Origin: a virus
IMG/VR virus record: IMGVR_UViG_3300038456_000415
Coordinates: 1 to 59,268 of that record
Direction: 5' to 3' (one strand)
Length of the DNA stretch: 59,268 nucleotides
The notes beneath the pieces are model-generated. The model searched no databases, had not been told where the DNA came from, and worked only from the letters and a program-made list of their open reading frames with translations. The position numbers were made by a program, and so were the translations under genes. The first letter of the stretch is position 1. Every line of letters begins with the position of its first letter. Positions 13,062-53,165 of the stretch are shown here, one piece after another.

Positions 13062-13529
13062 ATGATGAAGAAGAAGCGGTTCCTCTCCTCAGCGCCGACG
13101 CACTGCTTCCGGGCCTATGTGCAGGCCCCCTACCGGCAAATCTGCTACCTGATGCTGAGCATCGGGGCTGAGCGCACGCTCCTCACCCTGATTCGCTACG
13201 CCACCTTCAAGAAAGACGTCGGTGACACGAACTTCATGATTGCCTACCCGAGCGTGGGGACGCTGGCCCTGCAGAGCAACCAGCACGCGAGGACCGTCCA
13301 GAGGGCCTTGAGAGAACTAGAGAAACTGGGTCTAATCCGCATCGAGCACCGTGGGTCCAGCCACCAGGTCAACCGCTACGACCTCAGCGGGCTCCAGGCG
13401 CGCCTGGACGAGTTGGTGCCCCTCTGCGAGGAGCAGGGCCACGGGTGCGTCAAGGCCGTGTGCCCGAAGTGCAAGGACCCGTCCTTCGCCGACGAGGGGC
13501 AGGACGACGACGGCGAGAGCGACCCCTGA
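13062..13529 (+). CDS. Winged-helix DNA-binding protein, replication-initiator or repressor candidate
   Basis: A 155-residue protein. The ATG at 13062 (followed by a second ATG) is chosen because AAGGAG lies 6 nt upstream. Residues 60-105 form a winged helix: YPSVGTLALQSNQHARTVQR then ALRELEKLGLIRIEHRGS, with the recognition helix and a beta wing. The C-terminus has CEEQGHGC...CPKC, a possible zinc site, and an acidic tail. Such domains occur in DnaD/RepA-like initiators and in transcription factors. Position next to the 22-bp repeats suggests it binds them. Confidence 0.65.
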   Translation: MMKKKRFLSSAPTHCFRAYVQAPYRQICYLMLSIGAERTLLTLIRYATFKKDVGDTNFMIAYPSVGTLALQSNQHARTVQRALRELEKLGLIRIEHRGSSHQVNRYDLSGLQARLDELVPLCEEQGHGCVKAVCPKCKDPSFADEGQDDDGESDP

Positions 13530-13534
13530 GCCCC

Positions 13535-13545
13535 TGTGGTATAGT
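13535..13545 (+). promoter_or_regulatory. Extended -10 promoter of the chaperonin gene
   Basis: TGTGGTATAGT, 18 nt before the TTG start at 13564, with AAGGAG between. No -35 box is evident. Confidence 0.7.
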
Positions 13546-13563
13546 ACGCGCAAGGAGACAACC

Positions 13564-20841: not shown

Positions 20842-22488
20842 ATGAATGAATCGGCTTTTGCAAGGGCTATAATGGACCAAAAATACGCCCACGATACGGA
20901 AGAGGGCAAGGAGACATGGGAGCAGATTGCTCATCGTGTCCCAACCGCGGTACTGAAGGCTGTGGGTGCACCCAAGTCTCAGATTAAGGAGACCGAGGCC
21001 CTCATCTCCGCCAAGAGGTTCCTGCCCGGCGGTCGCTACTTGGCCGCGAGCGCCCGCCCCTTCCATCAGACCCAGAACTGCCTGCTCATGTCCGCCGAGG
21101 ACAGCCGCGAGGGCTGGTCGAACATCATGCACCAGTCCACCATGGGCCTCATGTCCGGGGCAGGCATCGGGGTCTGGTACGGGGACCTCCGGGGCGAGGG
21201 CCGTCCCATCCGCAAGACCGGTGGCTTCAGCTCCGGCCCGCTCGCGCTCATGCAGATGGTCAACGAGGCCGGCCGTTGGATTCGCCAGGGCGGTGACCGG
21301 CGCTCGGCCATCTGGGCGGGGCTCCCCTGGGACCACCCGGACATCATGAAGTTCATCTCCATGAAGAACTGGAGCGACGTGGTCCGGGAGATGAAGGCCA
21401 AGGACTACAACTTCCCCGCGCCCATGGACGGCACCAACATCAGCGTGGGCCTCGACGACAAGTTCTTCAGGGCCTATGCCGACGACAAGCACGAGCATCA
21501 CGCGCTCGCGCAGGGCGTGTACTGGTCGGTCGTCAGGCAGATGCTCAAGACCGCGGAGCCGGGCTTCAGCGTCAACACGGGCGCGAACCGCGGGGAGTGC
21601 CTGCGTAACGCCTGCACGGAAATCACGAGCAGGGACGACAGCGACATCTGCAACCTCGGAAGCATCAACATGGCCAACATCGAGAGCCTGGAGGAGATGC
21701 AGAGGTGCGTCGAGCTGGGCACGGCCTTTCTGCTCGCTGGCACCGTCTACTCGGACGTCCCTTATGGGAAGGTGGACGGCATCCGCACCAAGAACCGGCG
21801 CCTGGGCCTGGGGCTCATGGGCATCCACGAGTGGCTGCTCAAGCATGGCAAGCCCTACGGTCCCGACGAGGAGCTGGCCAAGTACCTCGAGATTTACGCC
21901 AAGAGCACCGAGGTCGCCGCCAAGTACGCCAAGGAGTGGGACCTCACCGCGCCCGTCAAGACGCGTGCCATCGCCCCCACGGGTACGATTGGGATTATTG
22001 CGGAAACTACAACCGGCATGGAACCCATCTTCTGCGTGGCCTACAAAAGAAGGTACCTGAAGGGGAACGTCATCAACTACCAGTACGTAATCGACCCCGC
22101 GGCTGCGCGTCTCATCGAGGGGGGCATTGCCCCGGAAGCCATCGAGGACGCGTACGTGCTCGCCGAGAACGTGGAGCGGCGCGTCGCCTTCCAGGCGTGG
22201 TTGCAGCAGTACGTGGACCACAGCATCAGCTCCACCATCAATCTCCCCGCGTGGGGCTCGGAGCTGAACAATGAGAGCCGGGTGCGTGAGTTCGGGGACA
22301 TGCTCATGAAGTACCTCCCTCAGCTCCGGGGCATCACCTGCTACCCTGACGGGGCCCGCGGGGGGCAACCCCTGACCCCTATCGCGTACAAGACCGCGGT
22401 GAAGCACACGGGCGAGGTCTTCTCCGAGGTCGTGCTCGAGCAGGCCGACGTCTGCGACATTACAAAAGGCGGAAGCTGCGGGGCGTAG
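20842..22488 (+). CDS. nrdJ: Ribonucleotide reductase, adenosylcobalamin-dependent (class II)
   Basis: A 548-residue reductase making deoxynucleotides. The active-site triad is N256-A-C258-T-E260, within CLRNACTE. C80 (QNCLLM) and C270 (ICNLGSIN) form the redox pair; their spacing, 12 residues after the active cysteine, matches class II rather than class I enzymes. The tail CDITKGGSCGA supplies C-terminal cysteines for re-reduction. No small subunit gene is present in the window, consistent with B12 dependence. Catalytic motifs are intact, and it could raise dNTP supply without oxygen. Confidence 0.87.
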   Translation: MNESAFARAIMDQKYAHDTEEGKETWEQIAHRVPTAVLKAVGAPKSQIKETEALISAKRFLPGGRYLAASARPFHQTQNCLLMSAEDSREGWSNIMHQSTMGLMSGAGIGVWYGDLRGEGRPIRKTGGFSSGPLALMQMVNEAGRWIRQGGDRRSAIWAGLPWDHPDIMKFISMKNWSDVVREMKAKDYNFPAPMDGTNISVGLDDKFFRAYADDKHEHHALAQGVYWSVVRQMLKTAEPGFSVNTGANRGECLRNACTEITSRDDSDICNLGSINMANIESLEEMQRCVELGTAFLLAGTVYSDVPYGKVDGIRTKNRRLGLGLMGIHEWLLKHGKPYGPDEELAKYLEIYAKSTEVAAKYAKEWDLTAPVKTRAIAPTGTIGIIAETTTGMEPIFCVAYKRRYLKGNVINYQYVIDPAAARLIEGGIAPEAIEDAYVLAENVERRVAFQAWLQQYVDHSISSTINLPAWGSELNNESRVREFGDMLMKYLPQLRGITCYPDGARGGQPLTPIAYKTAVKHTGEVFSEVVLEQADVCDITKGGSCGA

Positions 22489-34655: not shown

Positions 34656-35679
34656 GGCGCTCCAGGACCTGATTTCCAACTCGGGCCTGAGCTTCAACGA
34701 CAGGAACACCAAGTCCTGGGTCTTCGACTGCCCAAAATGTGGCAAGAAGGAGAAGCTCTACATCCGGCGCCGGGACGGGCGCTTCGTGTGCTTCTACTGC
34801 CGCGACAAGGAGGGCTTCAGCGGCGCCCCGGAGTTCGCGCTCGCCCTCCTCCTGGACAGGACCGTCGGCGAGGTCACGGACGCCCTCTACGGGCCCGAGT
34901 TCAAGGCCACCCCCAGGATTGAATCCAAGTTCACGTACTCGGTGCGCCTGAACCTCGAACCAGGCTCGGATGACGACGACTTCGGGGCGTCCGATGCCGG
35001 AGAAACCGCGCAGACCTCGCCCAAGGGCCTCCTCTACCCCCTGGAGTACCAGTCCGTGCTCGCCCCCGGTGGGGCCAAGGGCCTGGCCTACCTGGAGGGC
35101 CGCGGCATCACCGCGGAGGTGGCAGCCCGCTACGAGCTGATGTACGACCCCCTGAAGCGCAGGGTGGTCTTCCCAGTGCGCTCCAGGGGCGTCCTGGTGG
35201 GGTGGCAGGCACGCCTGACGGGCCCCCACGAGTGGGTGGACGCCCAGGGCCAGACCAAGAGCATGCCCAAGATTCTGACCACGATGGAGGAGGGCATGCG
35301 CGACTACGTGCTCGGGTTCGAGCACCGCCTCGTGGGGAGCGAGCACGCCGTCCTCACCGAGGGGCCCGTGGACGCGCTCAAGTGCGACCTCTGCGGGGGC
35401 AACGTCTTCAGCATGGGCAAGAGCGTCTCCGAGGGCCAGGTGGAGCGCCTGCGGGCGCACGGCGTCAAGCGCCTCTACCTGGGGCAGGACCCGGACGCGA
35501 GCAAGGAGACCCAGCTCCTGGTGCGCCGCTACAACGACGAGTTCGAGCTATGGTACATGACCCCCGAGGGGACCGGGTACGAGGACTTCGGGGCGATGCC
35601 GGCGGAGTGCGCGCGCGAGTGCTTCCTCGGGGCCGAGAGGGTGCACCCGCGGCGCATCTTCCTCAGCTTCAACCGGTGA
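34624..35679 (+). CDS. DNA primase, zinc-finger plus TOPRIM (DnaG-like)
   Basis: A 351-residue primase. ATG 34624 is the most likely start although no Shine-Dalgarno is visible; translation may depend on the overlapping upstream gene. The zinc finger CPKC/CFYC (C36, C39, C56, C59) is followed by GLAYLEGRGIT, VVFPVRSRGVLVGWQAR and the TOPRIM motifs VLTEGPVDALK and LGQDPDAS. There is no C-terminal helicase domain; a separate DnaB-like helicase is at 36941. Confidence 0.82.
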   Translation: MPRPTRPLRVEALQDLISNSGLSFNDRNTKSWVFDCPKCGKKEKLYIRRRDGRFVCFYCRDKEGFSGAPEFALALLLDRTVGEVTDALYGPEFKATPRIESKFTYSVRLNLEPGSDDDDFGASDAGETAQTSPKGLLYPLEYQSVLAPGGAKGLAYLEGRGITAEVAARYELMYDPLKRRVVFPVRSRGVLVGWQARLTGPHEWVDAQGQTKSMPKILTTMEEGMRDYVLGFEHRLVGSEHAVLTEGPVDALKCDLCGGNVFSMGKSVSEGQVERLRAHGVKRLYLGQDPDASKETQLLVRRYNDEFELWYMTPEGTGYEDFGAMPAECARECFLGAERVHPRRIFLSFNR

Positions 35680-36838
35680 CCGCGGCCGCCCGCCGGCAGA
35701 TGCGGCATCCCCTCTTGTGCTCCTTGAGGTACCGCGCGGACATCTGGCGCGCGTCCAGCTCCAGGGCGGTCTTGGCCTCCGCGGCGGCCTGCAGACGCGC
35801 GAGGAACTCGTCATGAGGGAGTTCCCCGAGACGCTCCTCGAGCCTGTTCTTGTGCAACCTCCGCTCCAGCTCCCTCTCCGAGTACACGAGAGTGCTGCTC
35901 CCGCGCCCATCCGTCCCCAGGTCGAGGTGGGTGACGATGGTGTCCTCAACCTCGGAATGGTGCAGGAGCGGTCCCGAGCCCCCGAGGGGACCCCTCTTCG
36001 TGCCACGTGTCTTGGACACATCGTTTGTCTCGAGGATGCCTCCATTCCCGATGCCCGATGCGTCGTTGCCGTTGCTTTCCCCACTGACGAGCGAGAACAC
36101 GGCCTGCCTCTCCATGAACTTCTGCCTGAGATTCTTGTCCCACAGCTCCCCGAACTGCTGCTGCAGGAACACGTACATGAGCTTCTGGTTCTGGGTCCCG
36201 TCCCCGCGGTGCGGACGCTCGTAGAGGGCCATGTAGGTGGTGGCCCAGACCCAGGCGTAGTTGAGGGCGTCCGCGTACTCGAGGCCGAGCATCTGCAGGG
36301 CCCGCCGGTTGCGGCGACAGAAGACCTTCGAGGCCATGCCCACCACGTTCTCGTACATGGCAATCTGCTCAGCCCCGGGGTTGGGCGCGCGCCTGAACTT
36401 GTCGTGGCGGAAGGCAATCAGGTCATCCCCGTCCCGGTGGCGACGCACGCGCCCCTGCAGGGGCTTTCTGCGTTCCCCCTCGGGGTGCACGCTCGAGGTC
36501 GTGAAGAAGCCCTCCTTGGGCACGCCCCGGTTGAAGGGCAGCAGGGGCTCGTGCACCCCCACGGCCCGGAGCATGCGCCGGAACTCCCCGGCGGTCTCCT
36601 TGGCGTTCCCGTAGAAGATGACGCACCCGTTCACGTTCACGCCCGGGGGCTCCTGGAGGCGCTCGGCACCGTCATCGACGCCCGTGGTGACGTGCACGCA
36701 CGTGGGCGACGCCCCCACCACCAGGTCCGTGGGTGGGGAGATGCCTTCGGAGAATGGGATGTTGTGGAAACGGAGCCAGGAACGAATGAGTGCGAGGGGT
36801 TGAGCGTTGTCGCTCAAGCGCATCTTCTTATTTCCCAT
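35669..36838 (-). CDS. Isolated minus-strand protein, weakly sigma-like
   Basis: A 389-residue protein on the strand opposite to its neighbours, converging on the primase (11-nt overlap) and diverging from the helicase. Residues 155-235, AMYENVVGMASKVFCRRNRR then LGLEYADALNYAWVWATTY, resemble sigma region 2.1-2.2, but the -10 recognition helix is not clear. The C-terminus has CRICRR and possibly one further zinc ligand. It might be a diverged sigma or a DNA-binding regulator. No Shine-Dalgarno is obvious. Confidence 0.5.
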   Translation of the reverse strand: MGNKKMRLSDNAQPLALIRSWLRFHNIPFSEGISPPTDLVVGASPTCVHVTTGVDDGAERLQEPPGVNVNGCVIFYGNAKETAGEFRRMLRAVGVHEPLLPFNRGVPKEGFFTTSSVHPEGERRKPLQGRVRRHRDGDDLIAFRHDKFRRAPNPGAEQIAMYENVVGMASKVFCRRNRRALQMLGLEYADALNYAWVWATTYMALYERPHRGDGTQNQKLMYVFLQQQFGELWDKNLRQKFMERQAVFSLVSGESNGNDASGIGNGGILETNDVSKTRGTKRGPLGGSGPLLHHSEVEDTIVTHLDLGTDGRGSSTLVYSERELERRLHKNRLEERLGELPHDEFLARLQAAAEAKTALELDARQMSARYLKEHKRGCRICRRAAAVTG

Positions 36839-36865: not shown

Positions 36866-36876
36866 TGAGGTATAGT
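36866..36876 (+). promoter_or_regulatory. Extended -10 promoter of the helicase gene
   Basis: TGAGGTATAGT, 64 nt before ATG 36941 and 28 nt from the divergent gene's start; AGGAG lies 10 nt before the ATG. Confidence 0.65.
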
Positions 36877-36940
36877 GCTGGCACAGGCTCTCTCAGGTTA
36901 CGAATACCCCCCTACTCTGTCAACAGGAGACCTCCACGAG

Positions 36941-38599
36941 ATGGCACTTTTAACGGACCGCAAGGGCAAAAAGGGCAAAGGCGACCCCCTCATTTTCAGC
37001 GACACCAAGCAGGAGGCCATCCTTGGGCACGCGCTCACGAATCGCATGTTCTTCCTCCAGATTCACAACCATCTCGAGCCCGAGTGGTTCACGAAACCCA
37101 ACAACCAGAAGCTCTACAGCGCCCTGAAGAAGTTCTACGCTGTCGAAGGCAGGTTCCCCGTGACGCCCGAGGAGCTGATGAGCAGCATGCAGCTGCAGCG
37201 CGAGGACCAGGGTGTTCGCACAGGCATGACGGCGGCCCTCATCCTCTGTCTGGCCTCGATGCCCAATTTCGGGGCCGACCTCCTCATCAGGGACTTCGGG
37301 CTCTGGGCGCGCAGCGTCCTCCTCGAGAAGTACGTGCAGAAGAGCACGGATACCTTCAACGGGCACGACCCCGAGGCTGCCCTAGACGTGTACAAGGAGG
37401 GGTATCGAAAAATCCAGACCGCGGAGCTTCTCGGTGGTGGCCAGGCCACGGACTGGAACCTCGAGGTCTTCGTGGCCCAGCAGAAGTCCGACCTCCAGAA
37501 CGGCATCACCTTCGGCTGCCCCGAGCTGGACGCCAAGCTCAACTCTAGCGCCAAGGCCGGCGCGCTCCTGCGCGGGGACACCACGGTCGTGCTCGCGCCC
37601 TCGGGCATTGGGAAGACGACCACCCTGATTACGGTGGCGACGCATAACATCCTCAGGGGCAAGTCCGTGCTCTTCATCACGCACGAGGGGCGCTCCGAGG
37701 ACATCAAGTTCAAGGTCCTCTGCTGCGTTCTCCAGGTCACCAGGGAGGAGTTCCTCGCGCTCTACCACAGCGACAAGAACTTCCGGAAGAAGGCCAACTA
37801 CTTCAGCAACGTCATCAAGGCCAACCTCACGTACATCGCCTACAATCACTCCTTTCCGAACATCCACGACGTCGAGAAGCTCATTCGCCGCGAGCAGGAC
37901 CTGCGCATCCTCAGCAGCGCGAACGGCACGGGCTACGACCTGCTCATCGACGACTACCCGGCGCTGCTGTACACGGACGGCCTGCGCTCGGGCCAGCTCC
38001 AGAAGCGTATCAGCGACGAGCAGGTCTACGGGTGCTTCGTGAGCATGGCCCTGGACTTCGGCTTCCACTGTCTGGTCGCCATCCAGACGAACCGCGAGGG
38101 CAGCAAGGTCAACCGCGGCCAGGGCGTGAACCGCCTCCTGACCATGGAGGACGTCATGGAGAGCTGGGGCGTGATGACCAAGGCCACGAACGTGCTCACC
38201 ATCAACCGCAGCCCCACGGACATGGCCAAGAATCGCGTCATCTTCTACCTCTGCAAGAGCCGGAGTTCGGAGACGGACTTCGCGTTCTGCTGCAAGAGCG
38301 ACTACGCCCGCGCTACCACGCATGCGCCCGCGGGGTGGCCGTACGTCGCCGAGAACGAGGTCTTCACCGTCAAGGGCTTCAGCCGCCGGCCCGAGGTGGA
38401 CCTCAGCCGCTACGGGTGCACGGCCTGGGCCGGGCATGACGGCAGCACCGAGCGCCTGGACGCCCTCATCGACACCTACCGGGGCCAGACCATCCCCGAG
38501 AACGTCAAACGCGCGCACATGTCGGGCATGACCGCGAAGCCCATGGTGGGCGATGGTTCTGGACAAAAACCCCAAACTGTGGTACAGTCAGTGCCATAG
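36941..38599 (+). CDS. dnaB: Replicative DNA helicase, DnaB-like
   Basis: A 552-residue helicase. The start at 36941 follows CAGGAG; the in-frame extension upstream lacks a ribosome site. The N-terminal helical domain (QEAILGHALTNRMFFLQIHN to about 130) matches DnaB, followed by a linker and a RecA-fold ATPase with Walker A APSGIGKT (219-226), LFITHEG, Walker B DLLIDDYPALL and QTNREG (arginine region). It would unwind the fork for the DnaE-like polymerase. Confidence 0.8.
   Translation: MALLTDRKGKKGKGDPLIFSDTKQEAILGHALTNRMFFLQIHNHLEPEWFTKPNNQKLYSALKKFYAVEGRFPVTPEELMSSMQLQREDQGVRTGMTAALILCLASMPNFGADLLIRDFGLWARSVLLEKYVQKSTDTFNGHDPEAALDVYKEGYRKIQTAELLGGGQATDWNLEVFVAQQKSDLQNGITFGCPELDAKLNSSAKAGALLRGDTTVVLAPSGIGKTTTLITVATHNILRGKSVLFITHEGRSEDIKFKVLCCVLQVTREEFLALYHSDKNFRKKANYFSNVIKANLTYIAYNHSFPNIHDVEKLIRREQDLRILSSANGTGYDLLIDDYPALLYTDGLRSGQLQKRISDEQVYGCFVSMALDFGFHCLVAIQTNREGSKVNRGQGVNRLLTMEDVMESWGVMTKATNVLTINRSPTDMAKNRVIFYLCKSRSSETDFAFCCKSDYARATTHAPAGWPYVAENEVFTVKGFSRRPEVDLSRYGCTAWAGHDGSTERLDALIDTYRGQTIPENVKRAHMSGMTAKPMVGDGSGQKPQTVVQSVP
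38560..38588 (+). promoter_or_regulatory. Promoter of the ClpP-like gene
   Basis: TGGACA (38560-38565), 17-nt spacer, TACAGT within TGTGGTACAGT (38578-38588), lying in the end of the helicase gene. ATG 38602 is 13 nt after the -10 box with no Shine-Dalgarno. Confidence 0.65.
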
Positions 38600-38601
38600 A
38601 T

Positions 38602-39180
38602 ATGGACGCCAAGGACCGGTACGACAGCATTGCCATGGACGGGGTCGACCTCCCCGAGAGGACGCTCTTCCTGACGGGGGACATCGACTACGAGATGGCC
38701 CAGCGTGTGCAGGCCGGTCTGGGTGTCCTTTCCGCTAGTGGGGCCGGCGTCATCAGGGTAGTGCTCTCCAGCAATGGCGGGGATGAGGATGCCGGTTTCC
38801 TGATTTTCGAGGCCATCCGGGGGTGTGCGAACAGAGTTCTCGTCATTGGCTCCGGTTCGGTCATGAGTGTGGCCGCCCTCATCCTCCAGGCCGGGGACTG
38901 GCGCCTCCTAACCCCGGCCTGCCGCGTCATGGTCCATGGGGGCAACGCCAAGCTCAAGAACAACATCCACCAGCAGATGCACGTCGTCGAGGTCGCAAAG
39001 GAGATGGAGGTGCGCACCCGCCAGTACGCGACCCTCATTGCAGAGCGGGCGGGCCTGAAGCCGTCGAGGGTTATGAGCTGGTGCCGCCGCGACAAATTCT
39101 TCAGCGCTGACGAGGCCGTTCGTATGGGTCTCGCCGATGGCGTCGCCCACCCTCCCTTCAAGAAGAAAGGCAAGTCATGA
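38602..39180 (+). CDS. ClpP/SppA-fold serine protease
   Basis: A 192-residue protein with a ClpP-type fold. GSVMS (85-89) provides the nucleophile S89, VMVHGG the histidine (H112), and KFFSADEAVRMGLAD the typical C-terminal helix. Strand LFLTGDIDYEMA matches the ClpP N-terminus. Phages use this fold for head maturation proteases; here it is far from head genes and next to the helicase, so cytoplasmic proteolysis or takeover of host ClpX/A is also possible. Confidence 0.75.
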   Translation: MDAKDRYDSIAMDGVDLPERTLFLTGDIDYEMAQRVQAGLGVLSASGAGVIRVVLSSNGGDEDAGFLIFEAIRGCANRVLVIGSGSVMSVAALILQAGDWRLLTPACRVMVHGGNAKLKNNIHQQMHVVEVAKEMEVRTRQYATLIAERAGLKPSRVMSWCRRDKFFSADEAVRMGLADGVAHPPFKKKGKS

Positions 39181-39854
39181 CCCTCCCGAACACGAACGTG
39201 ACCCTCGATACCCCCAAGAAGAAGGGCATCGCCGCCCTGGTGCTCTTGCTGACCTTCATCGTGGGCTTTGCCTTCGGGAAGTTCAACAACAAGCCCAACA
39301 TCAAGATTGACCAGAAGACGCAGACCGCGACCCAGCAGACCGGCAATGACGTCCAAAAGGACGTCACCAACGTCCAAGACCAGAAGCAGGTTCTCGCCGC
39401 CAAGGACGAGAACAAGAACCTCGACAAGAGCACGGACGTCGTCACGACCACGACCACGGACAAGAAGCCCACTGGCGAGGAAATCACGACCACCAAGACC
39501 GAGACCAAGACGCACGTGAAGACCAGCGACCAGACCAAGCAGGGCCTCAAGGAGGCCGTCAAGGACAACAGCGTCGACAAGAAGAGCGACGTCGACAACA
39601 CCAAGACCGACACCCAGAGCAAGACCTCCTTCCAGGAGACCATCACCCAGAGCCAGCCCAACTGGCGCCTAGCCGCCTTCGTGGGCCTGGACACGTCGGG
39701 GCTGAGCCTCAGTGGTAACGCCCTGGTGACGGGCCCGCTCCTGTACGGGGGCGAGGTCGACCGGCGCATCCTCGGCCCCATCTGGCTGGGCGTGCTCGCC
39801 GAGAAGACCGGCGGCGGCTTCGGCATTGCCGGCGACGTCAGCGTGCAGTTCTGA
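39177..39854 (+). CDS. Membrane-anchored protein with coiled-coil stalk
   Basis: A 225-residue protein; ATG 39177 overlaps the previous stop. KKKGIAALVLLLTFIVGFAFG (about 14-34) is one membrane segment, followed by a Thr/Lys/Asp-rich helical stalk (40-150) and a C-terminal beta-rich part (LAAFVGLDTSG to GIAGDVSVQF). The layout resembles spanins or superinfection-exclusion proteins, but no lysis genes are adjacent. Function unproven. Confidence 0.6.
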   Translation: MTLPNTNVTLDTPKKKGIAALVLLLTFIVGFAFGKFNNKPNIKIDQKTQTATQQTGNDVQKDVTNVQDQKQVLAAKDENKNLDKSTDVVTTTTTDKKPTGEEITTTKTETKTHVKTSDQTKQGLKEAVKDNSVDKKSDVDNTKTDTQSKTSFQETITQSQPNWRLAAFVGLDTSGLSLSGNALVTGPLLYGGEVDRRILGPIWLGVLAEKTGGGFGIAGDVSVQF

Positions 39855-40893: not shown

Positions 40894-41898
40894 ATGGAAA
40901 ACGCGGACATGCTGCTGGTGCGGGACCATTCCTCACCCCACGCCTTCAACCTGGCCATCGGGGAGCCGTTTTTCTTGCACGAGCACCTGCACTTCCTCGA
41001 GGCCACGGCGACCGGGGGGCCCTACCTGTACCCGCAGAGCCGCGGCGAGCCGGAGCTGCTCAAGGAGCTGGAGCGCCGCCATCACGGCATGCACGTGGTC
41101 GTGACCGTTGGCGCCAAGCAGGGCATCTCCGCTGCCCTGGCGGCCTATGCGGAGGTCTATGGCACTGAGGCAGCCATCCACACGGCTCCTTATTGGCCTA
41201 GTTATCCTATCCTGGCCAAACGGGAGTTCCCTATCTATGGCCTCGGGTCTATGGCGAGCTACATGGGGGGTCCGAACAAGGTCGTGCGCGTCGCCACGAG
41301 CCCCAACAACCCAGATGGCACCGAGAGCACCGAGGACTGCGACATCTGGGACGCCGCGTACGCCTCGTCGGTGTACGGCTTCACAACCCCACCCGCACAC
41401 TGGACCGTGGCCGTGTACAGCGCCGCCAAGCTCCTAGGCCTATCGGGGCTCCGCATCGGCTGGGTCGTGACCGCGGACGCTCGCCTGGCCAAGGCCATCG
41501 CGGTCTACGTGGAGCGCTTCACCTCGGGCGTGTGCGTGACCTCGCAGCGGCACCTCGCCTACGCTCTGAAGCATCTGCGCGTCAATGACGACCACGCCTT
41601 CTTCGACGCGGCCCGGAAAACGCTCCTGAAGAACGGCGAGACCTTCATGAAGCTCCTCGGGGACCGCCTGAGCCGCGTCGATGGCGTGCCCACCAGTGGT
41701 AAGGGCATGTTCGCGTGGTTCCACGTACCCGGCGACAGCCTCCAGAGCTTCAAAGATGCCCTGACGACCTCCAAGGTCCTGCTCATGCCCGGGGAAGCCT
41801 TTGGGATGGTCGAGCCCGGGTGGTATCGTATGTCCATGGGTCACCACGACGGCTACACCTACCGGGCCCTGAAGGCCCTCGCGGAGGCCTGGGTATGA
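40894..41898 (+). CDS. PLP-dependent aminotransferase (class I/II fold, alliinase-like motif)
   Basis: A 334-residue PLP enzyme with all fold-type I landmarks: VTVGAKQG (71-78), APYWPSYP (98-105), TSPNNPDG (135-142, N139), DAAY (D153, Y156), the Schiff-base lysine in YSAAKLLGLSGLRIGW (K179, R187) and a C-terminal RMSMG arginine. It is about 50 residues shorter than typical aminotransferases, mostly at the N-terminus. The SPNNPDG box recalls alliinase/TAA1-like enzymes. Substrates are unknown; amino-acid salvage, nucleobase modification or quorum-signal chemistry are possible. It overlaps the CYTH gene by 4 nt. Confidence 0.8.
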   Translation: MENADMLLVRDHSSPHAFNLAIGEPFFLHEHLHFLEATATGGPYLYPQSRGEPELLKELERRHHGMHVVVTVGAKQGISAALAAYAEVYGTEAAIHTAPYWPSYPILAKREFPIYGLGSMASYMGGPNKVVRVATSPNNPDGTESTEDCDIWDAAYASSVYGFTTPPAHWTVAVYSAAKLLGLSGLRIGWVVTADARLAKAIAVYVERFTSGVCVTSQRHLAYALKHLRVNDDHAFFDAARKTLLKNGETFMKLLGDRLSRVDGVPTSGKGMFAWFHVPGDSLQSFKDALTTSKVLLMPGEAFGMVEPGWYRMSMGHHDGYTYRALKALAEAWV

Positions 41899-42566
41899 GG
41901 AAGAATTCCTTTGCGAAGGCCAGTCACCATGAACTCGAATTGAAATTCGACCTCACCACTGACGACATGGATGTGAAACTCCTGCGCCGCCGGTTCCTGT
42001 CCACGCTGTCCAAGGACTTCACCCTGGACAAGGTCTACACCATCACGAGCCCGGACGTGTACTACCGACAGGGCAAAAACGTACTTCGTTTCCGTGCCGA
42101 CCCCAAGAAGGTCGCCGGGGAACTGACGGTGAAGCTCCGCACGAGCAAGCAGAGCATCGCCAATCGCGTGGAGGTGGACCTACACCTCTCCAAGAAGACC
42201 ACCGATGACGACGTCCGCGCCTTCCTGGCCGCGACGGGATGGGGGGTCGAGCTGGCCATCGACAAGACCTCGACCATCGTACACATCGGGTCCACGCGCC
42301 TCTTCCCGGGGCAGAAACGCAGTCCGCCGACCATCCTGGCCTTCTATGTGGTCAACCTCGTCTCCGAGCCGGGGGTGGTACGCGCCTTCCTCGAGGTCGA
42401 ACTAGACAAGGACCACCTGACGGACCTCCGGGGCGCCGAGAAGCACCTCCGGAACTGGCACCGGTACTTCCTCAACGCGTTCCCGAACTTCCCACGGGAA
42501 CCCGTCGGCAAGAGCCTGTACGAGTTGTACACGGGGAAGACGTACCAGATGGCGAGGGAGAAATAA
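41895..42566 (+). CDS. CYTH-domain triphosphate tunnel metalloenzyme
   Basis: A 223-residue protein; ATG 41895 overlaps the aminotransferase stop (ATGA). The diagnostic ExExK is HELELK (E13, E15, K17). Further tunnel strands are VLRFRAD, ELTVKLRTS, RVEVDLHL and AFLEVELDK, providing alternating Arg/Lys/Glu side chains. CYTH enzymes hydrolyse triphosphates (RNA ends, thiamine triphosphate, inorganic triphosphate) or make cAMP. Coupling to an aminotransferase is unusual; an RNA 5'-end role would fit the nearby RNA ligase. Confidence 0.72.
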   Translation: MRKNSFAKASHHELELKFDLTTDDMDVKLLRRRFLSTLSKDFTLDKVYTITSPDVYYRQGKNVLRFRADPKKVAGELTVKLRTSKQSIANRVEVDLHLSKKTTDDDVRAFLAATGWGVELAIDKTSTIVHIGSTRLFPGQKRSPPTILAFYVVNLVSEPGVVRAFLEVELDKDHLTDLRGAEKHLRNWHRYFLNAFPNFPREPVGKSLYELYTGKTYQMAREK

Positions 42567-42808: not shown

Positions 42809-43453
42809 GTGGCCGCAAATCTACACATCGAGGCCATGGCCTGGTTGAGGTACACCAAGCAGCTCCCCCTTGTCTGCACCGAGGTGGGCCGATGGAATGC
42901 GGACGTGCTTGGCATCGGCCCCAAGTACAGCATCGAGGTCGAAATCAAGAAGAGCATCAGCGACCTTCGCAACGACTTCAAGAACAAGCGCAACAAACAC
43001 CATTTCTATGCCCAGGGCGGGGGCTTTCAGCGTACGTGCGCGGTTCCGAACTACCTCTACTTCCTGGTCCCGGAGGTCCTAAGGGAAAAGGCCGAGGTCG
43101 TGCTCCAGGACCAGAACCCCAAGTACGGCCTCCTCTGGGTACCCACCTTCAGCTTCGACCGGGAGACGCAGAGCCTCGGGTACGCCGCAGGCAAGAACCT
43201 CCAGTCGGCCAAGAGGGCCACGCGCTTGCACGACAACCCCCCGGCGGGGAGCGTTATCCAGAACGCCATGCGCAGGCTCAGCAGCGAGCTTGTGGGCCTC
43301 TACCAGAGCCATGAGCGTCTCGAGTTGGACATCATACATTACCTCGAGGAGATTCGCGCGAACGTGAGAGCGAGTGCCGCCGTGGTGGCGGGCTTCACCC
43401 CAGAACCGCCTGAGCCCGACTACACCCAGGAGGACAGCGACCATGAAGCGTAA
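42809..43453 (+). CDS. PD-(D/E)XK nuclease, MmcB-like
   Basis: A 214-residue protein from GTG 42809 (weak ribosome site). WNADVLGIGPKYSIEVEIKK carries the catalytic D-x(n)-ExK core, followed by SISDLRNDFKNKRNKH, the arrangement seen in MmcB-type putative DNA repair endonucleases. The C-terminus is helical and acidic. It could cut host DNA or process phage DNA. Confidence 0.6.
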   Translation: MAANLHIEAMAWLRYTKQLPLVCTEVGRWNADVLGIGPKYSIEVEIKKSISDLRNDFKNKRNKHHFYAQGGGFQRTCAVPNYLYFLVPEVLREKAEVVLQDQNPKYGLLWVPTFSFDRETQSLGYAAGKNLQSAKRATRLHDNPPAGSVIQNAMRRLSSELVGLYQSHERLELDIIHYLEEIRANVRASAAVVAGFTPEPPEPDYTQEDSDHEA

Positions 43454-43691
43454 TCCCCTCATCCGAATCCCCATCAACGACCACCAGACCCGGTACAAGC
43501 TCACGTACGAGAGCCTGCCCTGTGAGCCCACGTCCGTCTCGGGACGCGTGGAGCAGATGTACATGCTCCAGACCCTCACGGACCAACCGCAATTATGTTA
43601 CTGTGGAAACGTGCCCTTCGACACCCTAAAGGTCTACCACAATTCCGTCTGTTGGATAATCGAGATGGAAGCCGTGGAGACCCATGTCTAG
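43443..43691 (+). CDS. Small hypothetical protein
   Basis: An 82-residue protein, ATG 43443 overlapping the nuclease end. It has CYCGN near residue 52 and CWII near 71. Beta-rich. No family recognised. Confidence 0.5.
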   Translation: MKRNPLIRIPINDHQTRYKLTYESLPCEPTSVSGRVEQMYMLQTLTDQPQLCYCGNVPFDTLKVYHNSVCWIIEMEAVETHV

Positions 43692-44200: not shown

Positions 44201-45241
44201 ATGAGTGAGTTCGCCTGCCCCGTCGTCCGCGTCGGAGCCATCACCAAACACCCCCAGGCTGACCTCCTGAGCATCACCGAAATCGATGGCTGTCCCGTCA
44301 TCTTCAAGACCGAGGACTTCAAGGAGGGCGACCTGGCCATCTACGTGCCCATCGAATCCGTGGTCAAGCAGGACAGCGAGGGCGGTAGACTGATGCCCTG
44401 GTTGGAGTGGAAGTACAACGGCACGTCCCGCATCAAGGCCAAGAAACTCCGCGGCGTCTTCTCCATGGGGGTGCTCATCCCCGCGGGCGTGACCTTCGGG
44501 TACACGGAGGGCGCTGACTACGCGGCCGCCTTGGGCATCGAGAAATACGTGGAGCCCGAGCACCTCGACACCCGCGGCCAGGACGAGCAGGCCCCCCAGG
44601 GCTTCCAAATCCCCGTTTACGATATGGACAGTTTCCGCAAGTACAAGGGCCTGTTCCAGCCCGGGGAGTACGTGGCCATCACGGAGAAGATTCACGGCTG
44701 CAATGCTCGCTTCGCGTTCCTGAACGGAGCCCTGCAGGTGGGCAGTCACAACCGCTGGAAGCGCCGGCCGCCCGAGGGTGTCGTGCCCGGCAAGAGCGAT
44801 GTCTGGTGGAAGCTCGCCCTCCAGGAGAACCTCGAGACGCGCCTGAACCACCCAGAGGTCGTGGACCGGTACTGCTTCTACGGAGAGGTCTACGGCCAGG
44901 TGCAGGACCTCAAGTACGGCGTCCCCAGTGGGGTGAAGTGTGTCATGTTCGACATCCTTGACCTCAAGACCTTGAAGTGGCTGGACTATCCGGAGTTCCT
45001 GGCCGTGTGTGGGGCCCTGAACCTTGAGACGGCCCCGTGCCTCTACACGGGCGTCCTGGACGAGGCCAAGGCCTTCGAGCTGGCCGAGGGGCTCTCCGAG
45101 CTAGGTGAGGGCAAGTGCATCCGCGAGGGTGTCGTCATCAGACCCCTCCTGGAGCGCCAGGACTTGCGCCATGGGCGTGTATGCCTTAAACTGCATGGGC
45201 AGGGCTATCTACTGCGCAAGGGAGGGACAGAGGCCCATTGA
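44201..45241 (+). CDS. RNA ligase, Deinococcus Rnl (Rnl5)-like
   Basis: A 346-residue ligase; AGGAG is 6 nt before ATG 44201. An N-terminal OB-like module (residues 6-100, CPVVRVGAITKHPQADLL) precedes the nucleotidyltransferase: EKIHGCN with the adenylated lysine K163 (motif I), GSHNRWK (181-187), FYGEVYG (226-232), REGVVIRP (motif IV) and LKLHGQGYLLRK (motif V). The N-terminal module is the hallmark of the DraRnl group, which seals 3'-OH/5'-phosphate nicks, also in DNA/RNA hybrids. It probably repairs host or phage RNA cut by defence nucleases. Confidence 0.82.
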   Translation: MSEFACPVVRVGAITKHPQADLLSITEIDGCPVIFKTEDFKEGDLAIYVPIESVVKQDSEGGRLMPWLEWKYNGTSRIKAKKLRGVFSMGVLIPAGVTFGYTEGADYAAALGIEKYVEPEHLDTRGQDEQAPQGFQIPVYDMDSFRKYKGLFQPGEYVAITEKIHGCNARFAFLNGALQVGSHNRWKRRPPEGVVPGKSDVWWKLALQENLETRLNHPEVVDRYCFYGEVYGQVQDLKYGVPSGVKCVMFDILDLKTLKWLDYPEFLAVCGALNLETAPCLYTGVLDEAKAFELAEGLSELGEGKCIREGVVIRPLLERQDLRHGRVCLKLHGQGYLLRKGGTEAH

Positions 45242-45272: not shown

Positions 45273-45548
45273 ATGACCATGACAATCGAAGTCACCGAAC
45301 AGGACATCCTCGATGGCTGCAGCAGGAGCACTCAGAACTGTCCCATTGCCCGCGCGAGCAAGCGCGCTGGACTGGGGCCGCTTGTTTTCGTCAATGGGTT
45401 CTCCATCAAGACCTATGGGGCCAGGGGTGTCAAGCCTATCGCACGCTATGCATTGCCCCAAGAGGCCTGCGACTTCGTGGTGGACTATGATGCGGGCGAA
45501 CCCGTGTTGCCCTTCAGCTTCGAGATTGACCTCAAGGCTGGCTACTAG
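45273..45548 (+). CDS. Small protein, first of a tandem paralogous pair
   Basis: A 91-residue protein. VTEQDILDG, RSTQNCPIARASKRAG and a C-terminal PFSFEIDL are shared with the next gene, showing tandem duplication. The CPIA(R)A-type motif occurs in small phage/plasmid proteins of unknown function. A leaderless promoter drives the pair. Confidence 0.6.
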   Translation: MTMTIEVTEQDILDGCSRSTQNCPIARASKRAGLGPLVFVNGFSIKTYGARGVKPIARYALPQEACDFVVDYDAGEPVLPFSFEIDLKAGY

Positions 45549-45550
45549 CC

Positions 45551-45817
45551 ATGAAAGTCGAAGTCACACAGAACGACATCGATATTGGGCTGCCAAGGAG
45601 TGCTACTTCATGCCCGGTAGCACGAGCCTGCAATCGAGCAGGCTTTTATGGCGCAACAGTGGGCGTGACCCGGTTGCTGTATTTTGACGGACACCAGACG
45701 GTGGGCATCGATATGCCCTCTCAAGTTACGAATTTTATCAAGGCTTTCGACGATGGCCGACGCCGCGTCGAGCCCTTTGTTTTCGAGCTGGACGACATCG
45801 TCAGGGAGGGGCTCTGA
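45551..45817 (+). CDS. Small protein, second of the tandem paralogous pair
   Basis: An 88-residue protein 2 nt after its paralogue's stop. VTQNDIDIG, RSATSCPVARACNRAG and PFVFELDD align with the first copy; the central strand differs. Divergence implies an old duplication. Function unknown. Confidence 0.6.
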   Translation: MKVEVTQNDIDIGLPRSATSCPVARACNRAGFYGATVGVTRLLYFDGHQTVGIDMPSQVTNFIKAFDDGRRRVEPFVFELDDIVREGL

Positions 45818-46283: not shown

Positions 46284-47186
46284 ATGGCCAAGAACCTTAT
46301 CTACGGCTACATTGACCCCCGGAACGGACATCTCAGGTATGTCGGGAAATCTACGCTAGGGATGCACCGGCCCAAGGCCTTCGGTGGGCATTCTCACGGC
46401 CATGTGGGCAGATGGATTGAATCCCTAGCTCGGCTAGATTTGGAGCCTGGAATACTCATTATCGAAGAGCTTCCAGACGACGCCGACGATGCCTGCCTCG
46501 ATGAGGCGGAGCGCCACCACATAGCCTATTGGAGATTTGTTGAGTGTAACCTGACGAATCTCCTACGTGGCGGCGGAACGGGCACCAGGGGGTACAGATT
46601 ATCCCCCGAATCCATCGAGATGGGCGCCGCTAAAAAAAGGGGCCGAAAACGAGACCCGAAATCCATCGCTAAGACAGCCTCAGCCAACAGAGGGAGGAAG
46701 CGGAGCCTGGAGGCGAGGGCGAAGATGTCCGCCGCCTCGCTGGGGCGCAAGAAAAGCCCCGAGGCGGTCCTGAAGACCGCAGCTGCTAATAGGGGCCGGA
46801 AGCAAACTCCCGAGGAAATTGAAAGAAGAGTATCCTCTATTCGGGGACGGAAGCAGAGCCCTGAGACTATCGAAAAAAGAGCCTCAAAGTTGAGAGGGCG
46901 TAAGCAACGCGCCGAGGTGGTTGCAAAAAGAGCCGAAGCGCAAAGGGGTTACAAACAAAGTCCCGAACACATTAAGAACAGGTTCGAAGCTCGGAAGAGG
47001 TCCATTCAAGACCAATACGGAGAGGTATATCCGAGCATCAAAGAAGCCGCCGAACGGTTGGGGCTTCGGGCAAATTGTATCAGCACCGTACTGGGGGGCA
47101 AATACAAGCATACCGGTGGCTATGTCTTCACATACGTCACTCCCTCGACGCCGGCACAAACAGCGGCTACACTGGAGGCCAAGTGA
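46284..47186 (+). CDS. GIY-YIG homing endonuclease with NUMOD repeats
   Basis: A 300-residue protein. The catalytic module IYGYIDPRNGHLRYVGKS (6-23) is GIY-YIG-like, with a downstream E/H-rich helix. Residues 115-235 hold about seven copies of a 17-18-residue RGRKxSPE-type NUMOD3 DNA-binding repeat, and the C-terminus (IKEAAERLGLRANCISTVLGG) is a NUMOD1-like helix-turn-helix. AT-rich composition marks it as mobile. It sits between two unrelated small genes. Confidence 0.85.
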   Translation: MAKNLIYGYIDPRNGHLRYVGKSTLGMHRPKAFGGHSHGHVGRWIESLARLDLEPGILIIEELPDDADDACLDEAERHHIAYWRFVECNLTNLLRGGGTGTRGYRLSPESIEMGAAKKRGRKRDPKSIAKTASANRGRKRSLEARAKMSAASLGRKKSPEAVLKTAAANRGRKQTPEEIERRVSSIRGRKQSPETIEKRASKLRGRKQRAEVVAKRAEAQRGYKQSPEHIKNRFEARKRSIQDQYGEVYPSIKEAAERLGLRANCISTVLGGKYKHTGGYVFTYVTPSTPAQTAATLEAK

Positions 47187-47204: not shown

Positions 47205-47594
47205 ATGAGCAATCTCTGGCTGGACGACGTGAGGCCTGCCCCCCCAAATTGGCTGTGGGTCAAGACCGTAAGGGACGCCCAGAAGCTCCTCTCCGAGGGC
47301 AAGGTCGAAAAGGCAAGCCTGGACCACGACCTCGGACCCCAGCCCCCGTGTCTGGAGTGCGAGGGCGAGACGCAGGACTGCGGGCAGTGCCACTGCCACC
47401 AGCGCCCAAGCAACGGTTGCGACCTAGTGGGGTGGATGGTGGGGTCCGGCAAGTGGCCGCTCCACAAGCCCGAGGTGCACAGCGCAAACCCGCCGGGCGC
47501 CCAGCACATGCGCGCGATGATAGACCAGCACTTCCCTGGCAACCCGGGACCAGCCCAGGCCCCCTCGGGCAACGGTGGGTCCTCCAAGACGTAG
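47205..47594 (+). CDS. Cyclic-phosphate-processing receiver-like (cREC) protein
   Basis: A 129-residue receiver-fold protein. LWLDDVRPAP (D7, D8), the second acidic strand KASLDHDLG (about 36-44) and the late HSANPPGAQHM motif match the cREC group, predicted from genome context to process cyclic phosphates on RNA ends. A Cys/His-rich insert (CLECEGETQDCGQCHCH, about 49-65) may bind zinc. Presence within 3.5 kb of the RNA ligase supports an RNA-repair role; the activity itself is not demonstrated. Confidence 0.68.
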   Translation: MSNLWLDDVRPAPPNWLWVKTVRDAQKLLSEGKVEKASLDHDLGPQPPCLECEGETQDCGQCHCHQRPSNGCDLVGWMVGSGKWPLHKPEVHSANPPGAQHMRAMIDQHFPGNPGPAQAPSGNGGSSKT

Positions 47595-47650: not shown

Positions 47651-47791
47651 GTGGCCCTCAAGCGTGACCAGTGGCTGCGTCTCCGCCAGCTCGCCCTGGA
47701 AGTGGGTATCCGCGACGGTGGCCGCACCGACGGCGTGGGCGCCATCGTCAGGGCCTGCGTGGACCGCTACCTGGGAGAACCCAAGCTATGA
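47651..47791 (+). CDS. Ribbon-helix-helix-like small protein (start uncertain)
   Basis: A 46-residue reading from GTG 47651. VALKRDQWLRLRQLALEVG then VGAIVRACVDRYL looks like the strand and two helices of a CopG/Arc-type repressor. The open frame continues upstream into the cREC gene in another frame without a convincing start codon, so the real start could differ or a frameshift may exist. Confidence 0.35.
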   Translation: MALKRDQWLRLRQLALEVGIRDGGRTDGVGAIVRACVDRYLGEPKL

Positions 47792-47973
47792 CCGAGGAAG
47801 AGCTGAAGGAGCTGGTGGAGACCATCACGGACACGGAAATCAAGTTCGACGAGCGCCTGACCGCACTCGAGAACTTCAACGACGAGGTCAAGGCAACCCT
47901 GGAAGAGGTGGGGAAGAGCCTGCAGATTCTCGACAGCCGCCTCAAGGACGTCGAGAAGTGGAGGCGCTCGTGA
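47788..47973 (+). CDS. Short coiled-coil protein
   Basis: A 61-residue protein; ATG 47788 overlaps the previous stop. It is a single amphipathic helix with heptads (LKELVETITDTEIKFDERLT). The gene overlaps the deformylase start. Function unknown. Confidence 0.5.
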   Translation: MTEEELKELVETITDTEIKFDERLTALENFNDEVKATLEEVGKSLQILDSRLKDVEKWRRS

Positions 47974-48440
47974 TTCGCAGCGTGCTCCTCTACCCGGACG
48001 CTAGGCTCAGGGGGGTCTCTAAGCCGCTCGAGGAGGAGGAGGACTTCAATGATGACCTGGTCGACCTCATCGCCGACCTCCGGGAGACCATGCAGCACTA
48101 CCGCGGCGTGGGCCTGTCAGCGCCCCAGATTGGGGTCATGAAGAGGGTCGTCGTCATCACCGGAGACCCCCGCGCCGCCGAGCCCTTAGTTCTCGTGAAC
48201 CCCGTCATCACACACCTCAGCGGGAACAGGAAGCTTATGCGCGAGGGGTGCCTGAGCTTCCCCGGGGTCTTCGAGATGGTGATGCGCAGTTTCAAAGTGA
48301 GGGTTTCGTTTTTATTCCCGGACAAGCTCGACCAGCGCTATAGTATGAAACTAGCCGGCCTCCAGGCTCACGTGGTGCAGCACGAGCTTGAACATCTCGA
48401 CGGAATTCTTTTGAGCGACCACAAGAAGATTGTGGTATAG
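47970..48440 (+). CDS. def: Peptide deformylase
   Basis: A 156-residue metalloprotease-fold enzyme that removes the formyl group from nascent proteins. GTG 47970 has GGAGG 5 nt upstream. Motifs are GVGLSAPQ (46-53, usually GxGLAAxQ), EGCLSFPG with metal ligand C94, and QHELEHLDG with H138, E139 and H142. All catalytic residues are kept and the C-terminal extension of bacterial enzymes is absent, as in other phage versions. It may speed phage protein maturation or alter host membrane-protein turnover. Confidence 0.88.
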   Translation: MIRSVLLYPDARLRGVSKPLEEEEDFNDDLVDLIADLRETMQHYRGVGLSAPQIGVMKRVVVITGDPRAAEPLVLVNPVITHLSGNRKLMREGCLSFPGVFEMVMRSFKVRVSFLFPDKLDQRYSMKLAGLQAHVVQHELEHLDGILLSDHKKIVV

Positions 48441-52469: not shown

Positions 52470-53165
52470 TTACTCCACATACTTGAAAGTGTAGCCCTTA
52501 GCGGCAGATACTTTGCCCTTTAGGACTAGACAGATGTGAGAACGATGAACGCCAAGCTCACGCGAAGCCGCAACGGCAGATTTGTAGACTTTACCGTTTG
52601 AAGCCCAAATAGATTTAGAGACAGCGGCCGAAATCTTGGCTCGTCTTTCTGCAGAATGGGGTCCATTCTTCCTTCCAGAAAGCGTGGCTGAGATTTTGGC
52701 TCGAATGGTCGGGTCAGCAGACCTTGCTCGGGCCCTATCTACAAGAGCTGTCCTCTGTTCTTGGGTGAGGTCCTGTTTCTTGCCCAACGCGTGCTTGTTC
52801 CCGAGATTAGCCTCACGAAGTTTTCGCTTGGTTTCTGGGCTCATCTTACGCCCAACACACCCCTCACCGCCAAGAGTGTGGTTGTACAGTCCGGCCCCCA
52901 ACGACTTCCAATAGGCGATGTTCCAAATCTCTGCCTCTGGGAGGTCATCTCGATTCTCGTAGACTTCAAGAAGGATGGCTTCGGGTCTCATTCCCTGGGC
53001 TTTGAGTGACCGTATCCAGTTCCCAGTATGACTGTGGTCGCGTTTCAGGTATCCTGGATAAGCATGAGACCTAGCCCGCTTCAGTCCATACGTGGACTTG
53101 CCCACGTACCGGAGTTGTCCGGTCCGGGGGTCTGCCAATCCGTAGATGATGAACTTCGAGGCCAT
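52470..53165 (-). CDS. GIY-YIG homing endonuclease with NUMOD motifs
   Basis: A 231-residue protein; AAGGAG before ATG 53165. IIYGLADPRTGQLRYVGKS is the GIY-YIG core. NUMOD3-like units (GRKMSPETKRKLREANLG, SGRKNGPHSAERRAKIS) and a NUMOD1-like C-terminus (VAASRELGVHRSHICLVLKG) bind DNA. It resembles the endonuclease at 46284 but has fewer repeats. It is inserted between tail genes and is AT-rich. Confidence 0.85.
   Translation of the reverse strand: MASKFIIYGLADPRTGQLRYVGKSTYGLKRARSHAYPGYLKRDHSHTGNWIRSLKAQGMRPEAILLEVYENRDDLPEAEIWNIAYWKSLGAGLYNHTLGGEGCVGRKMSPETKRKLREANLGNKHALGKKQDLTQEQRTALVDRARARSADPTIRAKISATLSGRKNGPHSAERRAKISAAVSKSIWASNGKVYKSAVAASRELGVHRSHICLVLKGKVSAAKGYTFKYVE

What the first reader, a model, noticed from the sequence alone, without database searches (positions are those of the whole stretch)
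40894..42566. Complete aminotransferase translationally coupled to a CYTH triphosphate enzyme
A full set of fold-type I PLP residues in a phage gene is unusual, and the ATGA overlap ties it to a CYTH (ExExK) enzyme. The pair could form an undescribed pathway: amino transfer onto a nucleobase or nucleotide followed by triphosphate handling, small-molecule signalling, or anti-defence nucleotide metabolism.
Basis: partly seen in the sequence, partly recalled or inferred. Interest (0 to 1): 0.7.

Follow-up and report, generated by a model that had tools for sequence, protein, structure and literature searches.

The report
Phage aminotransferase–triphosphatase gene pair
A large uncultivated bacterial virus carries an intact amino-group-transferring enzyme, related to the plant enzymes that make auxin and garlic flavour, overlapping a gene for a triphosphate-cutting enzyme; the pair recurs in related viruses, but each gene often occurs without the other, so they look like two co-expressed enzymes and not one new pathway.

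Summary
40894-41898 encodes a complete fold-type I PLP aminotransferase. 41895-42566 encodes a CYTH/TTM (triphosphate tunnel) protein, overlapping it by ATGA. Pfam misses the second protein; a profile, an AlphaFold model (pLDDT 91) and Foldseek (Sulfolobus TTM, 1.7e-7) show it.

About 40 related phage contigs were compared. The pair overlaps in 8 genomes at a fixed slot between DnaB/ClpP genes and a conserved small gene. Yet 9 genomes have only the aminotransferase, 7 only the CYTH, and co-occurrence is no better than chance (p=0.51). The one-pathway reading is therefore not supported. CYTH motifs predict a triphosphatase, not an adenylyl cyclase or thiamine triphosphatase. Pair-carrying genomes of 165-172 kb lack thymidylate-synthase-family enzymes, arguing against pyrimidine hypermodification. 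The aminotransferase keeps the carboxylate-binding Arg in 22/22, so it most likely acts on alpha-amino/2-oxo acids.

Two unexpected leads: (1) all 22 phage aminotransferases belong to the Alliinase_C/TAA branch; plant TAA1 and garlic alliinase nest inside the sampled phage family (100/99; phage-only monophyly rejected, AU p=0.003). (2) The RNA-end/cyclic-phosphate domain cREC occurs only with the CYTH (11/19 versus 0/19); a tree-aware test lacked power.

Substrates and roles remain unknown.

The parts
40894..41898 (+). PLP-dependent fold-type I aminotransferase, Alliinase_C/TAA branch (334 aa, stop included)
   Evidence: Pfam; PDB profile hit L-Trp aminotransferase 3bwn 6.7e-51; AlphaFold pLDDT 90.8; Foldseek top hit 3bwo 1.7e-18; active-site residues invariant in 22 of 22
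41895..42566 (+). CYTH / triphosphate tunnel metalloenzyme (223 aa, stop included), predicted two-metal triphosphatase
   Evidence: start ATG 41895 inferred from overlap and homologue starts
41895..41898 (+). ATGA stop/start overlap (likely translational coupling)
   Evidence: Sequence; overlaps of 1-32 bases in all 8 abutting pairs, a 4-base start/stop overlap in 4 of them
36875..38599 (+). DnaB-like replicative helicase (upstream border of the conserved block)
   Evidence: phrog_19 2.3e-37; syntenic in relatives
38602..39180 (+). ClpP-like protease
   Evidence: Pfam CLP_protease 2.3e-26; syntenic
39177..39854 (+). conserved protein with N-terminal hydrophobic segment, immediately upstream of the AT/CYTH slot in many relatives
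   Evidence: Sequence; cluster 'memb' in 16 loci
43443..43691 (+). small conserved protein that closes the AT/CYTH slot ('sm105' cluster, 18 loci)
   Evidence: the start at 43443 is my choice
44201..45241 (+). RNA ligase (PF09414 with PHA02142 OB fold)
   Evidence: Pfam 6.2e-24; phrog_968 1.4e-34
47205..47594 (+). cREC (cyclic-phosphate-processing receiver domain, PF20274); co-occurs with the CYTH
   Evidence: Pfam 1e-22; survey

Best explanation
The locus encodes two co-expressed but separable enzymes in an accessory slot of the replication block of a large, uncultivated tailed-phage lineage. (i) A dimeric PLP aminotransferase of the Alliinase_C/TAA branch: Lys179 carries PLP, Asp153, Tyr156 and Asn139 hold the pyridine ring, Arg312 binds the alpha-carboxylate of an L-amino acid, and the amino group is passed to a 2-oxo acid by ping-pong chemistry. 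This would change the amino-acid/keto-acid pool of the infected cell, probably an aromatic or other bulky amino acid given the kinship to TAA1. (ii) A TTM-type, two-metal triphosphatase that removes the gamma phosphate of inorganic triphosphate, (d)NTPs or 5'-triphosphorylated RNA; from its co-occurrence with cREC and its nearness to RNA ligase, nucleic-acid-end or nucleotide clean-up is the likeliest setting. The ATGA overlap co-translates them; it does not make them steps of one pathway. Shown: both folds, catalytic residues, recurrence, and independence of the two genes. Inferred: activities, substrates, roles and expression.
For: AT: invariant PLP and substrate residues in 22 of 22; TAA1 and alliinase are the best matches by profile and fold; Alliinase_C in 22 of 22, up to 4.1e-62, versus at most 33 bits for ordinary bacterial ATs. 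CYTH; motif rules give a TTM triphosphatase. Selection: dN/dS 0.07-0.10. Recurrence: overlap in 8 genomes. Independence. cREC nested in CYTH carriers.
Against: AT and CYTH keep the same order wherever they abut, and their divergence is correlated (Mantel r=0.60, p=0.005); shared ancestry explains this (each also tracks RecA), but a loose functional link is not excluded. The CYTH-cREC link rests on few evolutionary events: only 4 supported independent pairs, and the tree-aware test cannot reach significance; among 16 genomes of at least 120 kb p=0.09. No substrate is shown for either enzyme.
Confidence: 0.62

Rival explanations
1. The pair is a dedicated two-step pathway: the AT aminates a nucleotide or base (or a nucleotide-linked sugar) and the CYTH handles the triphosphate, giving modified DNA or RNA or an anti-defence nucleotide.
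For: Fixed gene order and overlap in 8 genomes; correlated divergence.
Against: Each gene often occurs alone, also in near-complete genomes. The substrate-carboxylate Arg is invariant. No thymidylate-synthase-family enzyme in G001, G007, G008 or G023. No PHROG or PADLOC link to modification or defence.
Confidence: 0.07
2. The CYTH is the RNA-repair or RNA-end arm (5'-triphosphatase or phosphoanhydride clean-up) working with RNA ligase and cREC, and the AT is an unrelated metabolic passenger in the same operon.
For: cREC in 11 of 19 CYTH carriers and 0 of 19 others; RNA ligase 1.6 kb and cREC 4.6 kb downstream of the CYTH gene in the window; in G001 the order is CYTH ... cREC - RNA ligase - Thg1; fold similarity to Cet1/Pct1 RNA triphosphatases, though weaker.
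Against: RNA ligase itself is not significantly linked to CYTH (p=0.19). Clade-2 phages carry CYTH without cREC or RNA ligase. Phylogenetic power is low.
Confidence: 0.22
3. The CYTH is a class IV adenylyl cyclase (small-molecule signalling).
For: CYTH fold; class IV cyclases are among the weak profile hits (0.03).
Against: HFxxxxExExK in 0 of 19; first Arg of RxR and second Glu of ExE kept in 19 of 19, whereas cyclases lose them by the published rules.
Confidence: 0.02
4. The AT acts as an alliinase-type C-S or beta-lyase rather than an aminotransferase.
For: Alliinase_C family; garlic alliinase is the second-best match.
Against: The alliinase EGF-like N-terminal domain is absent (334 aa, starts at the PLP domain arm). 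Nearest solved relative by score is an aminotransferase.
Confidence: 0.08

Closest known systems
Plant L-tryptophan aminotransferase TAA1 (PDB 3BWN/3BWO; Pfam PF04864 Alliinase_C)
   Same: Fold, PLP residues, carboxylate Arg; top hit by profile (6.7e-51) and structure (1.7e-18); nests with phage members in the tree
   Different: About 22% identical by structure alignment; shorter (334 aa); the window protein is in a sister branch of the phage clade next to TAA1; tryptophan activity untested
Garlic alliinase (PDB 1LK9/2HOR)
   Same: Same Pfam family and tree branch
   Different: Lacks the EGF-like domain; alliinase is a lyase, not an aminotransferase
Triphosphate tunnel metalloenzyme SaTTM (Saci_0718, PDB 7NS8-7NSF)
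   Same: Tunnel fold, ExExK, RxR, DxY and ExE motifs
   Different: About 16% identical; extra C-terminal conserved 'SLYEIYSGK' segment in the phage family
CYTH triphosphatases of jumbo phages (PMC7824862; e.g. A0A6J7WT37, Ralstonia phage RP12 protein)
   Same: CYTH fold in phages, proposed NTP-degrading triphosphatases
   Different: No detectable sequence similarity in 50,697 phage records; different genomic setting

Membership tests
Class I/II aminotransferases (PF00155), fold type I | Schiff-base Lys, ring Asp/Tyr, Asn, phosphate Arg, substrate-carboxylate Arg | tested here: met
   K179, D153, Y156, N139, R187, R312 invariant in 22 of 22; PF00155 6.4e-23, above cut-off
Class I/II aminotransferases (PF00155), fold type I | Amino transfer from an L-amino acid to a 2-oxo acid | not testable with these tools
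   Needs an enzyme assay
Alliinase_C / TAA branch (PF04864) | Score above Pfam cut-off and beyond ordinary ATs | tested here: met
   22 of 22, best 4.1e-62, window 58.9 bits (cut-off 22); ordinary Bacteroidota ATs at most 33 bits
Alliinase_C / TAA branch (PF04864) | Groups with TAA1 and alliinase apart from AspAT, HisC and other ATs | tested here: met
   100/100 in the full and the reduced data set; grouping also kept under a second model
Alliinase proper | EGF-like N-terminal domain | tested here: not met
   Protein starts at the PLP-domain arm; no such domain in Pfam scan
TAA1 orthologue (Trp aminotransferase) | L-tryptophan:pyruvate activity | not testable with these tools
   Needs an assay
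CYTH / TTM superfamily | ExExK motif and tunnel residues | tested here: met
   Invariant in 19 of 19
CYTH / TTM superfamily | TTM fold | tested here: met
   Model pLDDT 91, Foldseek 1.7e-7 to SaTTM, probability 1.00
CYTH / TTM superfamily | Pfam PF01928 match | tested here: inconclusive
   Window protein none; 7 of 19 homologues match at E up to 1, best 7.6e-8
Class IV adenylyl cyclase (CyaB) | HFxxxxExExK and loss of Arg in RxR and of second Glu in ExE (PMC8233210) | tested here: not met
   0 of 19 HF; Arg and Glu kept in 19 of 19
Thiamine triphosphatase | W/YxRxR | tested here: not met
   0 of 19
Hydroxymethyl-pyrimidine-based DNA hypermodification pathway | Thymidylate-synthase-family enzyme in the genome | tested here: not met
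   None in G001, G007, G008, G023 (165-172 kb) nor in the window; present only in G010, G025, G026
Cet1-type RNA triphosphatase | Closest fold or RNA 5'-triphosphatase activity | tested here: inconclusive
   Cet1/Pct1 found at 1e-4 or weaker, behind archaeal TTMs; activity not testable

The most novel reading that the evidence does not exclude
An uncultivated lineage of 140-172 kb tailed phages carries an old phage-borne branch of the TAA/alliinase aminotransferase family, and plant auxin-making TAA1 and alliinase arose from within this branch by transfer from phages or from hosts not sampled here. In the phages the enzyme reroutes an aromatic or bulky amino acid, while the overlapping TTM triphosphatase is a new companion of cREC in RNA-end or cyclic-phosphate processing.
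Probability: 0.15. Interest if true: 0.8.

Novelty: new member of a known kind. Interest (0 to 1): 0.5.

Why it matters
The origin of plant TAA genes is disputed (PMC5611494, PMC4754409). A diverse phage family that brackets plant TAA1 and alliinase gives that debate data it lacked, and a substrate test on one phage enzyme is easy. For phage biology, it documents an intact aminotransferase kept under purifying selection in the replication block of phages whose sequences range from about 55 to 68% G+C in the loci measured (and A+T-richer in G001), and a TTM triphosphatase whose presence tracks the cREC domain, which makes a specific RNA-end or nucleotide-processing hypothesis testable.

Tried and rejected
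Single-protein searches for the CYTH found nothing in viral contigs, INPHARED phages or the PDB; only profiles, and a RecA bait for related genomes, worked. The deep AT alignment had no stretch conserved enough for a collection scan. Listeria and Enterococcus 'phage' hits to the AT (24% identity) come from unannotated records and were not followed; they may be host aminotransferases. DNA hypermodification was tested through thymidylate synthase and not supported. Cyclase and ThTPase readings failed the motif rules. The CYTH-RNA ligase link did not hold statistically (p=0.19) and the peptide-deformylase control reached p=0.05 on all records, so only the CYTH-cREC link stands out. Tree-aware pair tests were underpowered. 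Thg1 is too rare (3 genomes) to test. NCBIfam gave no equivalog above cut-off for the AT. PADLOC found nothing. More TAA-like relatives of the clade-2 AT were not found in viral contigs, plasmids or phage records.

Full report
WHAT IS THERE. The window is a 59,268-base virus record of a tailed phage (portal protein, PolIII alpha, RecA-like, DnaB, ClpP). ORF 40894-41898 encodes a 334-aa aminotransferase (Aminotran_1_2 6.4e-23, Alliinase_C 5.5e-16). Its stop overlaps the ATG of ORF 41895-42566 by ATGA. The 223-aa product of the second ORF has no Pfam hit of its own, but it is a CYTH/TTM protein. Seven of 19 homologues hit PF01928. The family profile finds archaeal TTMs in the PDB. The AlphaFold model (pLDDT 91) matches the Sulfolobus TTM first, and the closest viral structure is an annotated phage CYTH protein.

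RELATIVES. The AT finds three other phage contigs, one of 171.7 kb (G001); the window is collinear with about 57 kb of G001. A RecA bait brought about 38 contigs of the same lineage. Profile searches of the whole records found the AT in 18 of 36 and the CYTH in 16 of 36 further records. A 165-kb contig binned with an Elusimicrobia MAG also carries the pair.

THE SLOT. In the main clade the two genes occupy a fixed place between DnaB-ClpP-membrane protein and a conserved small protein: both, AT alone, CYTH alone or neither. Where they abut (8 genomes) they always overlap by 1-32 bases, always AT first. In G020 a 160-aa ORF lies between them; in G036 the order is reversed; in G004, G026 and G031 they lie far apart.

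ONE PATHWAY OR TWO ENZYMES? Over 38 genomes: 12 both, 7 CYTH only, 9 AT only, 10 neither (p=0.51). In 23 main-clade genomes with the slot and downstream region visible: 8, 4, 5 and 6 (p=0.41). On the RecA tree the AT changes state 11 times and the CYTH 7 times. Near-complete genomes have one without the other (G027, G009). So the genes are recurrent neighbours, not obligate partners. Their sequences diverge together (r=0.60), but each also tracks RecA, as inheritance in a shared locus predicts.

THE AMINOTRANSFERASE. G23, N139-P140, D153, Y156, K179, R187 and R312 are invariant in 22 of 22. R312 corresponds to the alpha-carboxylate Arg of class I aminotransferases (established family knowledge), which points to an alpha-amino acid/2-oxo acid substrate rather than a nucleobase. 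The nearest solved structures are plant TAA1 and garlic alliinase by profile and by fold. All 22 match Alliinase_C, the best at 4.1e-62. In 118 Bacteroidota genomes ordinary ATs reach at most 33 bits, and the one strong match (65 bits) is in G042, the genome of the phage-like locus L121. In a tree with AspAT, HisC and other bacterial ATs, phage ATs plus TAA1 and alliinase form one side of a branch (100/100); TAA1 and alliinase join the phage ATs of G021, G026 and G031 (100/99); and a phage-only clade is rejected (AU p=0.0026). This holds after dropping long branches and under a second model (p=0.003 and 0.002). Caveat: few non-phage bacterial sequences were available, so an unsampled bacterial TAA-like clade could lie between. 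dN/dS is 0.08 in the one close pair.

THE CYTH PROTEIN. ExExK, RxR, K80, R91-E93, K124 and ExE are invariant in 19 of 19. By the rules of Vogt et al. 2021 (PMC8233210) there is no HF motif and no W/YxRxR, while the first Arg and the second Glu are kept. It is therefore predicted to be a TTM triphosphatase, not a class IV cyclase or ThTPase. CYTH triphosphatases were noted as scattered among jumbo phages and proposed to degrade NTPs (PMC7824862).

CONTEXT LEAD. Downstream lie an RNA ligase (44201-45241) and a cREC domain (47205-47594), the latter proposed to process cyclic phosphates and linked to RNA ligases (PMC7824862). cREC occurs in 11 of 19 CYTH carriers and in 0 of 19 others (p=1e-4). 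In the 23-genome set it is 11 of 12 versus 0 of 11 (p=1e-5), while AT shows no such link (p=0.28 and 0.21). In G004 the link holds although CYTH and cREC lie about 25 kb apart. Shared ancestry accounts for part of this: only 4 supported independent pairs exist, none contradictory, and none of the tree-aware tests can reach significance. Among 16 genomes of at least 120 kb p=0.09. I treat it as a lead.

HYPERMODIFICATION. No thymidylate-synthase-family protein was found in the pair carriers of 165-172 kb; the three genomes that have one lack the adjacent pair. Modification routes that do not need this enzyme were not tested.

VERDICT. Observation confirmed; joint-pathway interpretation not supported; two individually plausible enzymes of known kinds in a new phage setting. 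The TAA/alliinase kinship is the most interesting point and was not part of the original finding.

Noticed in passing
L107, L111, L108, L106 (AT genes of G035, G031, G026, G021): Plant TAA1 and alliinase nest next to these phage aminotransferases in the tree; shared motifs such as DxxYxWPxY and SKxTGHA.
   Followed up: partly
window 47205-47594 and relatives: cREC domain occurs only in genomes that also carry the CYTH (11 of 19 versus 0 of 19).
   Followed up: partly
L001 9608-10978: In G001 the aminotransferase is fused in frame behind an HNH-type (endonuclease VII-like) ORF, apparently an inserted mobile gene at the upstream junction; an internal start may be used.
   Followed up: no
window 20842-22488: Ribonucleotide reductase 67% identical to that of G003 but only 21-23% to G001/G002, unlike the rest of the genome (about 45-50%): likely replacement or transfer.
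   Followed up: no
window 13351-15423: Phage-encoded Cpn60/GroEL-type chaperonin (PF00118 1.9e-30), conserved in relatives; in clade 2 a c39 (Cpn60-like) gene lies next or next but one to the AT.
   Followed up: no
G001:C1:138886-141365 (L017): cREC, RNA ligase and a Thg1-type 3'-5' polymerase (PF04446 1.2e-29) in a row, about 1 kb after the CYTH: an RNA-repair-like cassette; NAMPT and Nudix genes lie elsewhere in G001.
   Followed up: partly
window 46284-47186: ORF with a GIY-YIG-like start and about eight degenerate 'xxRGRKxSPE' repeats, resembling a homing endonuclease; paralogue in G001 47735-48397 and another ORF at window 52470-53165.
   Followed up: no
window 35669-36838: A conserved gene lies on the minus strand between primase and DnaB here and in G002 but on the plus strand in G001: local inversion in an otherwise collinear block.
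   Followed up: no
window 39177-39854: Conserved protein with N-terminal hydrophobic segment, Lys/Thr-rich middle and aromatic C-terminus directly upstream of the slot in 16 loci; function unknown.
   Followed up: no
window 45273-45817: Two adjacent small paralogous genes (91 and 88 aa), each with a homologue in a distant part of G001.
   Followed up: no
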